A DNA stretch of 64,000 nt from Tubulanus polymorphus. Lineage: Eukaryota > Nemertea > Palaeonemertea > Tubulaniformes > Tubulanidae. The notes under the pieces are model-generated. The model saw only the letters and a list, made by a program, of their open reading frames with translations, ran no database searches and was not told where the DNA came from. Shown here one piece after another: positions 29-63,968 of the stretch. Both the position numbers and the translations under genes were made by a program. Positions within the stretch are counted from its first letter, which is position 1, and the number at the start of each line of letters is the position of its first letter. Where the stretch lies: the NCBI RefSeq assembly GCF_964204645.1, contig NC_134025.1, positions 3,291,001-3,355,000 of the forward strand. The letters are read 5' to 3'.

Positions 29-3000
29 CTCAGATTTATAGTAGAATAATTCTCCTTGTTGTAAAACGAACCATTTTCGGTGCCAATTCTTAACTTTGCC
101 ACCTAATTTTGTCATGTATCCAGACTTTTGCAAAATCTCCTAGAAAACCAAAAACCGTTATTCAATGAATGAAGCAGTATCAGATACATTCAAAATAAAC
201 ACATTGCATTCATACGGACCTTTTTTGCAGTTTGAGCAGTGTATTTTAGAAGTTTCACCTCAGGTTCGGAATGTTCGAGTTCACTGGATATTGAGACATC
301 ATCATCAGGAGGAAGACAATAATCACTGGATTCTGAACTCACAGTCGATACAACTGAAATACAACGAATTAACAATAACAATTTCAGATAAGATAAGATA
401 ATCTTATTCCTCTCCTACCATTTCCATGGTATGTGGAGGGAATAATAATTCTGTTACTAACATTGACAAAAAGGGAAAAATAAAGACATTTTTAAAAACA
501 TAACAAGGTTATTTGCAATTAAATACATACAAATATATACACTATTTACAATACAATATGAGGTTAATATATTTAATATATCAAAGTTTCTAAATGTGTC
601 TAACTTATTTATTCTGAATTATTTCGCAGAGTTCAGTAAGTAGGATAAAATTAAAAATAAAATGTAATTCATCCTCAAAAACGTTGCATGTTGGACACAT
701 TCTTTCATTTCTGGCTAAATGTACAGATACAGATCGTCACACCATCTGGTGGGATAGCTAGAGGTTAGAACACTGTATAGAAGGTATGTACCTCGTTTAG
801 TTGCACCTGATGGATTGACAGAACCTATAACAGTGACACTAGTGGTTGTCAGTCGACTCGGTCCAGCTACAGTCATCACAGCTTCACTTTCACCACCGGT
901 CGTCATTGCCATTTCACAATCTTCATTATCCGATGAATCCGAGGAACTTTCACCTGAAAATGGCTTACTGCGAATCAAAGCAGCTCTCTGAAATAAACGA
1001 GAACACATGGTTCAGGGCTGGATCTAAGGGGAGGGTCAGGGGGTGCATACCCCCCCCCCCCCCTAAAATGTGGCGTTGCCCTGAAATTCTAAGGCAAAAT
1101 GAAAAATTCATAAGCATCTTCTTTGTACGGTACTTCCTAAAATGAGGTATTAACGAATGTTTTCCGATGATCAGGTACCCTTTTAATCATGATATGCACT
1201 ATTTTGGGGTGTTCCTCTCCCCGAATCAGACCCTTGATCAGCCCCTACTGGTTACGAGTGATGCCACTGATTTTGCGGGAACAAATAGATCATCAACATA
1301 CCCCTTTAAAATTTGAATAGACAGGTACACTGACATCTCTGTAAATATGATCATTAGGACTGTCAGGACTGGAAGAACTCAGATGTACGTCATACTGAAT
1401 ACCGGAATTTGCCACCGCATAAATACGATTTTCCTATAAAAGAAAAACAATATTCGAACTAGATACAAGCGCGATATAGGTCAATTAATATTAGAATGTG
1501 AGAACATAGAATCAGGAATCAATTACCCAAGATGGCCTTCTATGTAAAGGAGGTGTTGGAGGCTTTGATAACGTATTCCTTACAGCGCTGCTATCACATT
1601 CCATCTGACTAGATTGTTTTTGTTCAGTTGTTTCTTTATCACTCACTAAAACGTCGATATCGAACGCAGGTTTTACTTTCAGAGTTAAATTGTCTCGTTC
1701 GTGGTGTCTAACACGCGGTAGAGTAGCGATTGCCGACACATTACGACTGCGCCGTACTGAACCGCAAGAGAGACACGAACTTCCTGAATAAATGCTGCTA
1801 ATGTCATGAAATTGTGGATTTATAGGTTTTGAGCACTTGTCCGGTTTTTGTTTTTTAGTTGATTCTTCTGGAGGAGAAACGCGTGATAGTCGAGGAGTCG
1901 TTAAACTATCCAATAAATAATCCTCACTATTCGCGCTGATCACCGAATCATAAAATGCCGAACTGTGAAATATTTTACGTTCGATTTTGATTTTCGGCGG
2001 CGCGTTTTTTAAAGGTTCGTATTTGCTTTCGTGATTTTCGTCGATTTCTTGATATTCGGGCTCGTTTTCGAGATCCTCCGAGATATTGCCATTCGCGTCT
2101 AACGGCGAATGAATATCATCATCATCATCGTCATCAGCTACATCATCGCTGTCATCATTTTCAATACACGGTTCACAATCCTGCGAAAACGAATCTTCTT
2201 TCTGGAACATGTCCATTACCATCGACGATGGTCGAGTCGGATGTTCATCGGGACTAGCGTGATGAGAAATCTCCCCGAAATTAGGCTGAAACGTAGAGAC
2301 AAATGATGATCTAATGAAAAATTGGGCCGCGCAAAATTCCTAAATATAGCCCACCCACTTATAGAAACAACAAGTCAAAGTCAAACTTAATGGGCACAAA
2401 TTTTGTCTCTTATTTCCATACTTCATCAATGATCAAAGTTAAGCATTTATCATACATTAACGAGAGGTTGACGACTAGACAGTTTTAAGAACACGCATGA
2501 CCGCTGATTGCTGATTCGTTTGTCTTGCAATGTTAAGAGCAGTCAGATTGACTATGACTCGGTCATTGCCAAGTCTAGCGCTATCGATCGTGTGACCAAA
2601 CAAACGCAATACTCGTTGCTGATTGGCTGCGGCATTAAAATCGGTCGTAGGAAATAGAACTTGTTCTATCCTTACGATCGGCCTGCGATCAATCTGTCGC
2701 AGTCGATTCCCGATTAAAACATCGCAGACTTGACTGCCAACGATCTGATCGGATTTTATTCGACCTGAATTAGGCTTTACTGATTCGACATGCTGTACCT
2801 GTTGGTCAGATTTGAAAATTTCTTTAGCTATATGCGAAGGTAACGAATGCAGTCGACTCGTAAGAATGTCAATTTTCTCCGTCAAGTGACAACGTTCGTA
2901 TTTCAGTGCTTCATTTTGTAATTCCAACTAAAATGTAGAAAAAAAAACATAGTAGTAATTGACAACGGGACATGAACATTTAGATCGAACCAATACAGGC

Positions 3001-62400: not shown

Positions 62401-63968
62401 ATCATCATGAAATAATGTGTTCATTTTCAACTCCTAGAAAAAGTAATCATAAAATTTGATCAAATGAGGCCAATTAAGAATCATCAGATTCAATACGTTC
62501 GGAACTATTTACCTCATAAACAACATGAAGAGCATAGAATAAAGCGGGAATATGTTGAAATAAAGGCGCTGTGACATCAATACGACCACCAGATGGCGGA
62601 CGATTCCACGACGGTATTTCCTGCAATGGATCCAATCCGAGAAGGAAATCCTGAGATACCATAAATGACTGATGATACGGACTGTTCGCTAAATATTCCC
62701 AATCCTGAAATTAATTCAAAACTACTGCTATATAATAAACGTATAAATGTGGTCCTCAAAATACTAACAGTTAAAATGAACACTGACCTCGTTCGAACCC
62801 TGATCAGACGGACGCGGCTTTTTTGCAACTGTTACCGGCGAAAGCGACAAATCTTGGTCCTGTAAAAAGGAAACCATGCACTGAAAGAAACCTTCCGCGG
62901 TACCTTACGATTCAATAACACGAAACAAACCTACTGAATGTGTAATGATAAATTGTTCAGCGTCAAATCCCATCAGACTGAGCAAACATTTAATAAATCT
63001 ACTCCACTCTGACTGACTGTTTGCAGACCCCGGAGCATTTAATGTTGTATACCATTTCAGTATACTTTGCATCGCTAGATCGCGAGGTAAAACTTGCTTA
63101 ATAGCCTCCAAACACAACGACACTGTAACAATAACCAATATGTTTAAGTATGATTAGATACTGACAAAACCAAGTTCATATGGATTAAGAACGAAATCTA
63201 TCAGTCAAAAATTAAAACTAACAGTCTTTTAATTCAAAGTCGTTTATGTTTTGATTATAACATATCTTTTGATAAATGAATTCTGTTCTTAATTCTCTAA
63301 ATTTGTATCTAGTGAGTTTTCATTGCACGATTGAATGACATACGCTGTATAGATCTATACTGACCAATAGGTGATGTCGATAATGAAGGCAGAGATGTTC
63401 GCAATAAAGTACCATTTCCCATCTCCTAAAACCGACCAAACATATTAAAACATTAGGGGTGTAATTCTCGGGAGTTAATGAAACCTTAGTGCATCGATGT
63501 ATCGCCAAAGTGGCCATAACCGCCCCGGTTACGGGCCTGTTGATGCAGTTGTTTGTTTACGTACCAAAGTGAATCGTTTATCAACGGGATCTCGTAAACA
63601 ATGAATTGTTGATAACGTATTGAGAAATGGGAATTCTTCCGTTAATGACGACGAGTTCAGTAAACTTTGTGACGATTCGTTTATTTCTGTAGGAACCGGC
63701 GACAGCATATTGATCTGTAATACGCAGTAGTAAAACATCAAAAACATTCCTTGCTAGAATATCAGATTGCTGAATGAATGATGACTTCTTCATAAATACA
63801 CACCGGTAATTCATCATCTATTCGAACATCAAGAGCACTCGCCGGTCGACTGGATGTCATAACTCCTTTTGAAAATGGACTCTGTAAAGCGGATAGACTG
63901 GGTCGTCCAGCTGTCATTGAGGTTGAGAGTGATGGGCATGGTGCTCCCATTAAATGTATCTTATTCAC
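56408..63968 (-). CDS. ANAPC1: Anaphase-promoting complex subunit 1, C-terminal 1433 residues
   Basis: APC1 is the largest scaffold of the APC/C ubiquitin ligase that drives mitotic exit. Exons in transcript order: 63804-63968, 63565-63714, 63365-63425, 62935-63122, 62788-62859, 62513-62704, 62363-62433, 62197-62288, 61971-62119, 61818-61896, 61642-61737, 61447-61569, 61236-61372, 61050-61156, 60890-60967, 60701-60790, 60521-60629, 60301-60441, 60171-60220, 59871-60055, 59698-59789, 59085-59302, 58938-59016, 58784-58858, 58643-58719, 58473-58563, 58282-58395, 58064-58209, 57782-57986, 57564-57709, 57274-57493, 57105-57200, 56849-57023, 56593-56718, 56408-56514. All 35 agree in phase. Proteasome/cyclosome repeats are plain: FHNGVAAGLRIA, HAGFLMALGLNGHLSTL, GVGLLLGIAAAKRGSMD, LGVGLVYQGTAHRHMAEVLL, RESYSLAAGLALGLV, GATLALGMMFFRTNNRA. 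DNRYHLQAFRHLYVLAAEPR follows. Stop TGA 56408-56410. The N-terminal WD40 part lies beyond the right edge. Confidence 0.97.

What the first reader, a model, noticed from the sequence alone, without database searches (positions are those of the whole stretch)
29..63968. Unduplicated ancestral block of human 2p21 and 14q24 (PLEKHH-THADA-ZFP36-RAD51B-HAAO)
The sequence shows PLEKHH(-) THADA(+) ZFP36(+) RAD51B(-) HAAO(+) ANAPC1(-). From memory, human 2p21 has PLEKHH2, THADA, ZFP36L2 and HAAO in the same order and relative orientation, including the divergent PLEKHH2/THADA pair. Human 14q24 has PLEKHH1, RAD51B and ZFP36L1, the last two convergent as here. The simplest reading is that the window keeps the block present before vertebrate genome duplication, with THADA and HAAO kept on one copy and RAD51B on the other. 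ANAPC1 is also on human chromosome 2, but far away.
Basis: partly seen in the sequence, partly recalled or inferred. Interest (0 to 1): 0.85.

Follow-up and report, generated by a model that had tools for sequence, protein, structure and literature searches.

The report
Invertebrate gene block predating vertebrate duplication
A stretch of what appears to be an invertebrate chromosome still carries, side by side and in the same order, genes that in humans are split between chromosomes 2 and 14, as expected if it preserves the arrangement from before the vertebrate genome was duplicated.

Summary
Confirmed: the window holds PLEKHH(-), THADA(+), ZFP36(+), RAD51B(-), HAAO(+), ANAPC1(-), on a 32-Mb contig (C1) of a 268-Mb unnamed, evidently invertebrate genome.

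PLEKHH, THADA, ZFP36 and HAAO match human 2p21 in order (papers) and orientation (recalled); the ZFP36/RAD51B pair matches 14q24. ZFP36, PLEKHH and HAAO gave one strong place each; a second, diverged THADA-like gene lies 4.3 Mb away.

Flanking NOVA, RAB1, presenilin, SERTA, Dicer and cornichon genes, and SIX, MTA, actinin-type and Rel-homology genes elsewhere on C1, have human relatives on 2p/14q or the linked 11q13/19q13 (mostly recalled). PBX and SMAD controls do not fall on C1. C1 therefore looks like the linkage group that was duplicated into 2p and 14q. The recognised flank genes are mostly not human neighbours (recalled), so the block is a locally preserved piece.

Not supported: ANAPC1 as a member; the position of PLEKHH1 on 14q. 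Not testable: other invertebrates (no other animal genome held).

Mechanism, inferred: shared regulatory DNA of ZFP36 spread over its neighbours. In humans, THADA-intron variants influence ZFP36L2, and RAD51B-proximal risk loci contact ZFP36L1.

The parts
1..7028 (-). PLEKHH gene, 5' half (coiled-coil region by eye, first PH domain); MyTH4/FERM part continues left of the window to about C1:3,277,000
   Evidence: PF00169 at 2-139; MyTH4 7.7e-30, PH, RA_2 in joined L001 pieces; one strong place in the genome, FERM exons at C1:3288455-3289144; first coding exon at 6861-7028 and the left end by eye
10404..20673 (+). THADA gene (ends approximate)
   Evidence: PF10350 9.9e-70 and PF25151 6.8e-34 on joined exons; THADA chain 8y2o 7.5e-81
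28618..29514 (+). ZFP36 (tristetraprolin family), main coding exon with tandem CCCH zinc fingers
   Evidence: PF00642 1.1e-19; 1rgo ZFP36L2 6.3e-41; one strong match in the genome, two weak ones on C10 and C4
29515..49641 (.). 20-kb interval between ZFP36 and RAD51B without a recognised gene; proposed regulatory territory of ZFP36
   Evidence: four ORFs over the codon-score threshold; eight ORFs of this interval scanned, including those four, 0 of 8 matched a Pfam family at E 0.05
49642..53341 (-). RAD51B gene
   Evidence: RAD51B chains 2.5e-47, best other paralogue XRCC3 4.5e-15; C-terminal exons 49,642-50,171; one of five Rad51-family places in the genome
54398..55804 (+). HAAO gene (3-hydroxyanthranilate 3,4-dioxygenase), last exon by eye
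   Evidence: PF06052 4.3e-32; only place in the genome, three exon matches; HAAO chains 6.2e-37
56814..64000 (-). ANAPC1 gene (continues right); neighbour, not shown to be part of the ancestral block
   Evidence: Apc1 chains 2.6e-106

Best explanation
The window is a surviving piece of gene order from the last common ancestor of this animal and the vertebrates. In that ancestor one ZFP36 gene was flanked upstream by THADA and, divergent from it, PLEKHH, and downstream by a convergent RAD51B and then HAAO. The two vertebrate genome duplications copied the block. The copy that became 2p21 kept PLEKHH2, THADA, ZFP36L2 and HAAO and lost RAD51B. The copy that became 14q24 kept PLEKHH1, RAD51B and ZFP36L1 and lost THADA and HAAO. 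Shown here: gene identities, order, strands, copy number of ZFP36, PLEKHH and HAAO, and that the contig carries markers of the wider 2p/14q linkage group. Inferred: that the animal is an invertebrate outgroup, the ancestral state, the losses, and the reason for the persistence, namely that long-range regulatory DNA of ZFP36 lies in and beyond its neighbours.
For: Six gene identities. Human 2p21 printed order OXER1, HAAO, ZFP36L2, THADA (PMC3990535 passage), with PLEKHH2 at hg19 2:43,965,641 and THADA discussed among the nearest neighbours of PLEKHH2, LRPPRC and SRBD1 (PMC5695603 passages). 14q24.1q24.2 list beginning RAD51B, ZFP36L1, ACTN1 (PMC10751923 passage). Chicken chromosome 5: PLEKHH1 SNP at 28.85 Mb inside the 28-29 Mb window that lists RAD51B, ZFP36L1 and ACTN1 (PMC6678660 passages). 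Linkage-group test: SIX 4 of 4 matches on C1, MTA 1 of 1, actinin/spectrin-type EF hand 2 of 5, Rel-homology 3 of 6 exon matches; controls PBC/PBX 0 of 3 and SMAD MH2 0 of 9 on C1, which is 12% of the assembly. By place 5 of 8 against 0 of 5: binomial 0.001, Fisher 0.04. Flanking NOVA, RAB1, presenilin, SERTA, Dicer and cornichon each have a human member on 2p or 14q (recalled). One strong place each for ZFP36, PLEKHH and HAAO.
Against: OTX, a further predicted marker, gave no match (that search rang nowhere, so uninformative). Actinin-type and Rel-homology families also have matches on C7/C11 and C4. Marker and control families were chosen by me from recalled locations, and only two controls were run. 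THADA is not strictly single copy and the copy number of RAD51B was not settled. PLEKHH1 sits on the wrong side of RAD51B on 14q (recalled). No other invertebrate was compared. Human strands and most human locations are recalled.
Confidence: 0.85

Rival explanations
1. The genes are on one ancestral chromosome because of chromosome-scale linkage conservation, and their adjacency in the window and in human arose independently by local shuffling.
For: C1 carries markers of such a linkage group, and the recognised flank genes, NOVA, RAB1, presenilin, SERTA, Dicer and cornichon, sit close together here but mostly lie in different bands in human (recalled).
Against: Even given the same 32-Mb contig, four genes within 57.5 kb has probability 2.3e-8 and five 5.2e-11; matching order and orientation of the four has a further chance of 0.005.
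Confidence: 0.05
2. The block is ancestral but neutral: it persists because rearrangement has not yet hit it, with no functional constraint.
For: Some blocks survive by chance. The flanks show one other possible survivor, SERTA and RAB1, which are both on 2p14 in human (recalled) and about 20 kb apart on the same strand here. No conserved non-coding sequence could be tested.
Against: Human THADA-intronic SNPs lie in regulatory elements and influence ZFP36L2 expression (PMC8886408 passage). Two rheumatoid-arthritis loci with RAD51B as proximal gene have ZFP36L1 as the distal, capture-Hi-C-linked gene in synovial fibroblasts (PMC8385949, section 9, Table 2). A Hi-C re-analysis links ZFP36L1/ACTN1 bins with RAD51B (PMC6844183 passage; its ZFYVE26 contact was weak and in a subset of replicates). 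A 2p21 enhancer listed with original target THADA/ZFP36L2 is hijacked in leukaemia (PMC12628035 table).
Confidence: 0.5
3. The block is held together by a cis-regulatory domain of ZFP36 in which THADA and RAD51B are bystander hosts; after genome duplication each ZFP36 copy kept only one of the two hosts.
For: Human data as above. The leukaemia enhancer at hg38 chr2:42.95 Mb lies, by recalled coordinates, between HAAO and ZFP36L2, which would also give HAAO a reason to stay. In the window ZFP36 lies between intervals of 7.9 and 20.1 kb without a recognised gene, and the longest coding-free stretch found in the 224 kb (8.5 kb, 33.7-42.2 kb) is in the latter.
Against: No enhancer, contact map or conserved non-coding element was tested in this genome. 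The coding-free measure is rough: flank exons were predicted automatically, THADA and ANAPC1 were entered by hand as solid blocks, and other stretches of 5-6.6 kb exist, so the interval is not extreme. PLEKHH is not explained.
Confidence: 0.35

Closest known systems
Chordate linkage group A (CLGA) of Simakov et al. 2020, PMC7269912 (abstract and passages seen), and the 2p/14q/11q13/19q13 paralogon (recalled)
   Same: C1 carries markers of this group. The paper describes pure CLGA ancestry on the left arm of chicken chromosome 3 and right arm of chromosome 5; chicken PLEKHH1/RAD51B/ZFP36L1 are on chromosome 5.
   Different: CLGs are chromosome-scale with extensively rearranged internal gene order; the window keeps local order and orientation as well.
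Ancient metazoan microsyntenic pairs with regulatory constraint (Irimia et al. 2012, recalled, not read)
   Same: Neighbouring genes kept together over more than 500 My, with a regulated gene beside large bystander genes.
   Different: Whether any of the present pairs is on that list could not be checked.
Genomic regulatory blocks with reciprocal bystander loss after genome duplication (Kikuta et al. 2007, recalled, not read)
   Same: Each duplicate of a regulated gene (ZFP36L1, ZFP36L2) keeps a different neighbour (RAD51B, THADA).
   Different: The target here is an mRNA-decay protein rather than a classical developmental transcription factor, and the duplication is the vertebrate 2R.

Membership tests
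Pre-2R ancestral block of 2p21/14q24 | Each window gene is the orthologue of the named vertebrate gene | tested here: met
   RAD51B versus other RAD51 paralogues, THADA 7.5e-81 versus the second copy 8e-20, HAAO, ZFP36 and Apc1; PLEKHH by domain order PH-PH-MyTH4-RA/FERM only. By best match; no trees were built
Pre-2R ancestral block of 2p21/14q24 | Same order as human 2p21 | tested here: met
   Order printed in PMC3990535, PLEKHH2 beside THADA in PMC5695603; relative strands recalled only
Pre-2R ancestral block of 2p21/14q24 | Same order as human 14q24 | tested here: inconclusive
   RAD51B listed next to ZFP36L1 and within 1 Mb in chicken; the PLEKHH1 position is rearranged (recalled)
Pre-2R ancestral block of 2p21/14q24 | Block present once in the genome | tested here: met
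   one strong place each for HAAO, ZFP36 and PLEKHH; exceptions and limits: a diverged second THADA-like gene, RAD51B copies not settled, ANAPC1 not searched
Pre-2R ancestral block of 2p21/14q24 | Linkage present in several independent invertebrate lineages | not testable with these tools
   no other animal genome held
Chordate/bilaterian linkage group that gave 2p and 14q | Other genes of the group on the same chromosome more often than controls | tested here: met
   merging nearby matches, 5 of 8 places of four marker families on C1, 0 of 5 places of two control families (Fisher 0.04); a fifth marker, OTX, had no match
Genomic regulatory block with ZFP36 as target | Enhancers of the target inside bystander genes | not testable with these tools
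   human evidence only

The most novel reading that the evidence does not exclude
An ancestral ZFP36 gene sat in one regulatory domain spanning THADA on one side and RAD51B on the other. Genome duplication split this domain, so that ZFP36L2 kept the THADA-side enhancers and ZFP36L1 the RAD51B-side enhancers. The immune and developmental risk loci in THADA and RAD51B would then be the two halves of one regulatory landscape more than 500 million years old.
Probability: 0.3. Interest if true: 0.75.

Novelty: new member of a known kind. Interest (0 to 1): 0.5.

Why it matters
It gives an undivided outgroup arrangement for two human disease-associated neighbourhoods (THADA/ZFP36L2 and RAD51B/ZFP36L1) and so lets one ask whether their regulatory elements descend from one ancestral domain. 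It also suggests which neighbours were lost on each vertebrate copy, and it is a locally preserved block inside a chromosome whose recognised neighbouring genes are otherwise mostly not neighbours in human.

Tried and rejected
Rejected: ANAPC1 as part of the block, because its human location (2q13, recalled) is far from 2p21 and nothing here links it. Rejected: that the window THADA might be a paralogue, because the second DUF2428 gene at C1:7.65 Mb is much weaker against THADA (8e-20 against 7.5e-81; the queries were of 291 and 400 residues) and only 27% identical to the window copy. Not found: a further gene beside ZFP36. Of ten long or well-scoring ORFs in the two intervals beside it, eight in the RAD51B-side interval, 0 of 10 had a Pfam match, nor had the 228-codon ORF at 25.8 kb; a fast-evolving or non-coding gene is not excluded.

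Led nowhere: OTX marker search; paper searches for a description of this block in invertebrates. The ten searches listed no paper whose title or abstract start describes it. Three of them had far more hits than were listed (214, 686 and 474 hits; 20, 15 and 15 shown); the library lacks most subscription journals, and supplements could not be read. tRNA and Rfam (gathering threshold) scans of the window gave nothing. A bacterial promoter/terminator scan has no bearing here.

Flank genes left unassigned because they belong to large families, matched weakly or matched nothing: M28 peptidase, kelch, fibrinogen-C, carboxylesterase, VWA/DUF4537, nuclear-receptor LBD, DUF4735, and several ORFs without match. 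These were dropped before the statement that six flank families each have a 2p/14q member; an adenylate-kinase gene (AK7 by eye, ADK 7e-7) and an RMDN-like gene seen only by eye were also left out of that count.

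Full report
What is in the window. The window is G000:C1:3,291,001-3,355,000, on a 32.06-Mb contig of a 267.8-Mb, 77-contig genome (contig length). That it is an invertebrate animal is inferred from its genes; it was not identified. Its recognised coding genes, from left to right, are PLEKHH(-), THADA(+), ZFP36(+), RAD51B(-), HAAO(+) and ANAPC1(-). The evidence is by Pfam and by comparison with solved chains: PH domain at 2-139 with a second PH, MyTH4 (7.7e-30) and RA-like domain continuing left of the window; THADA DUF2428 9.9e-70 and Trm732 C-terminal repeats, THADA chain 7.5e-81; ZFP36 tandem fingers 6.3e-41 to ZFP36L2; RAD51B 2.5e-47 with the best other paralogue, XRCC3, at 4.5e-15; HAAO 6.2e-37; Apc1 2.6e-106. 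The C-terminal RAD51B exons lie at 49.6-50.2 kb, so the gene is compact. The first recognised exons of RAD51B and HAAO are 1.1 kb apart and divergent.

Match to human. The order HAAO, ZFP36L2, THADA at 2p21 is printed in PMC3990535 (passage), and PMC5695603 (passages) places a PLEKHH2 variant at hg19 2:43,965,641 and discusses THADA among the nearest neighbours of its 2p21 candidates PLEKHH2, LRPPRC and SRBD1. ZFP36L2 is described as adjacent to THADA in PMC8886408 (passages). Reversed, this is the window order PLEKHH-THADA-ZFP36-HAAO. A 14q24.1q24.2 deletion list begins RAD51B, ZFP36L1, ACTN1 in PMC10751923 (passage), and in chicken the PLEKHH1 SNP at 5:28.85 Mb falls in the 1-Mb window that lists RAD51B, ZFP36L1 and ACTN1 (PMC6678660 passages). 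Human strands are recalled: PLEKHH2 +, THADA -, ZFP36L2 -, HAAO -, RAD51B +, ZFP36L1 -, PLEKHH1 +. With these, all four 2p21 relative orientations and the RAD51B/ZFP36L1 convergence match. PLEKHH1 does not: on 14q it lies beyond RAD51B rather than beyond ZFP36L1 (recalled), so that copy was rearranged.

Chance. If four named genes are placed at random on C1, the chance that all lie within the observed 57.5 kb is 2.3e-8, and for five genes 5.2e-11. Matching human order and orientation of four has a further chance of 0.005.

Copy number. In G000 the ZFP36 fingers have one strong match (the window, 9.3e-48) and two weak ones, on C10 (1.2e-5) and C4 (3.3e-4), taken to be other CCCH proteins and not examined. 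PLEKHH FERM exons match at one place, with one weak match on C9 (1e-4), not examined. HAAO matches at one place, in three exons. The Rad51 family gives 15 exon matches at five places: the window gene, C1:2.56 Mb, C1:6.67 Mb, C4 and C2; the last four were not typed, so that RAD51B is single copy is likely but not shown. THADA is not single: a second DUF2428 gene lies at C1:7.65 Mb, is much weaker against THADA (8e-20) and is 27% identical to the window copy. The window copy is therefore taken as the orthologue; the age of the second copy is unknown. ANAPC1 was not searched.

The chromosome. If the window is part of the pre-duplication ancestor of 2p and 14q, other genes of that group should be on C1. 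I chose families whose human members are on 2p, 14q, 11q13 or 19q13 (recalled unless cited). SIX genes: 4 of 4 matches on C1, three of them within 118 kb; PMC2211742 (passage) gives SIX1/4/6 at 14q23.1, SIX2/3 at 2p21 and SIX5 at 19q13.32. MTA: 1 of 1; MTA3 stands in the same cattle gene list as OXER1, HAAO, ZFP36L2, THADA, PLEKHH2, SERTAD2, RAB1A, SIX2 and SIX3 (PMC12075139 passage). Actinin/spectrin-type EF hand: 2 of 5 matches on C1, the others on C7 (two) and C11; which are actinins was not tested. Rel homology: 3 of 6 exon matches on C1, 3 on C4; Rel and NFAT were not told apart. OTX: no match, uninformative. Controls from other human regions: PBC/PBX 0 of 3 matches on C1, all on C7; SMAD MH2 0 of 9 on C1, on C12, C5 and C4. 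Counting neighbouring matches as one place, 5 of 8 marker places and 0 of 5 control places are on C1, which makes up 12% of the assembly; the binomial chance of 5 or more of 8 is 0.001 and the Fisher test of markers against controls gives 0.04.

The neighbours. I read 80 kb on each side. Recognised genes are NOVA, RAB1 (3.6e-54), an adenylate kinase, presenilin (1.1e-80), a SERTA protein, Dicer, cornichon, and several members of large families left unassigned. NOVA1, RAB1A, PSEN1, SERTAD2/CDCA4, DICER1 and CNIH1 are on 2p or 14q (recalled; RAB1A and SERTAD2 are in the cattle list). Apart from SERTA and RAB1, which share 2p14 in human (recalled), these neighbours lie in different human bands (recalled). 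The flanks thus look like a scrambled sample of the linkage group, and the PLEKHH-HAAO block within it like a locally preserved exception. This is an internal control against the idea that everything here is simply unshuffled, but it rests on the six flank families that could be assigned.

Why it may have persisted. In humans the neighbours of ZFP36 genes host or flank regulatory DNA for them. SNPs in THADA introns lie in regulatory elements and influence ZFP36L2 expression (PMC8886408 passage). Two rheumatoid-arthritis loci on chromosome 14 with RAD51B among the proximal genes have ZFP36L1 as the distal gene linked by capture Hi-C in synovial fibroblasts (PMC8385949, section 9, Table 2). A Hi-C re-analysis finds ZFP36L1/ACTN1 bins interacting with RAD51B (PMC6844183 passage). 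A 2p21 enhancer at hg38 chr2:42.95 Mb, listed with original target THADA/ZFP36L2, is hijacked in leukaemia (PMC12628035 table); by recalled coordinates it lies between HAAO and ZFP36L2, not in THADA. In the window ZFP36 stands between intervals of 7.9 and 20.1 kb with no recognised gene; the longest coding-free stretch found in the 224 kb (8.5 kb) is in the latter, but stretches of 5-6.6 kb occur elsewhere and the measure is rough. This is compatible with a regulatory block split between two duplicates, but it was not tested in this genome.

Comparison with the known. Chromosome-scale linkage groups and 2R paralogons are established (PMC7269912, abstract and passages, which names pure CLGA ancestry on chicken chromosome 3 left and 5 right). 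Ancient microsynteny under regulatory constraint is also known (recalled). None of the ten paper searches (capped lists) listed a description of this particular block. I therefore file it as a new member of a known kind.

Verdict. The ancestral state is very likely; the mechanism is a hypothesis. Comparison with further invertebrates is the missing test.

Noticed in passing
G000:C1:7,651,000-7,661,000 (L018-L019): A second, diverged THADA-like gene (DUF2428, 8e-20 to THADA), 187 kb from the only MTA match and next to an EF-hand gene that looks like PPP2R3C by eye.
   Followed up: partly
G000:C1:11,263,105-11,380,836: Three SIX-domain matches on one strand within 118 kb, plus a fourth at C1:2.21 Mb: possibly a preserved SIX cluster like human 14q23.1, with one extra gene; not typed.
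   Followed up: no
window 29,515-31,514: Four UAUUUAU motifs and 13 AUUUA in the 2 kb after the ZFP36 stop codon (region means 0.78 and 6.2 per 2 kb; 1.8% and 3.6% of windows reach these), but no UUAUUUAUU nonamer; compatible with ZFP36 regulating its own mRNA.
   Followed up: partly
window 25,761-26,444: A 228-codon open frame on the + strand between THADA and ZFP36 with no Pfam match.
   Followed up: partly
window 46,451-46,577: A perfect tandem duplication of a 64-base unit in the ZFP36-RAD51B interval, perhaps very recent or an assembly feature.
   Followed up: no
L011:4654-9738 and L013:2405-5236: Very long open frames (1695 and 944 aa) of charged, repetitive sequence on the - strand, not identified.
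   Followed up: no
G000:C1:4,503,182-4,529,048: Two actinin/spectrin-type EF-hand exons about 26 kb apart, perhaps a tandem actinin pair, 1.2 Mb from ZFP36; ACTN1 is listed next to ZFP36L1 in human 14q24.1.
   Followed up: no
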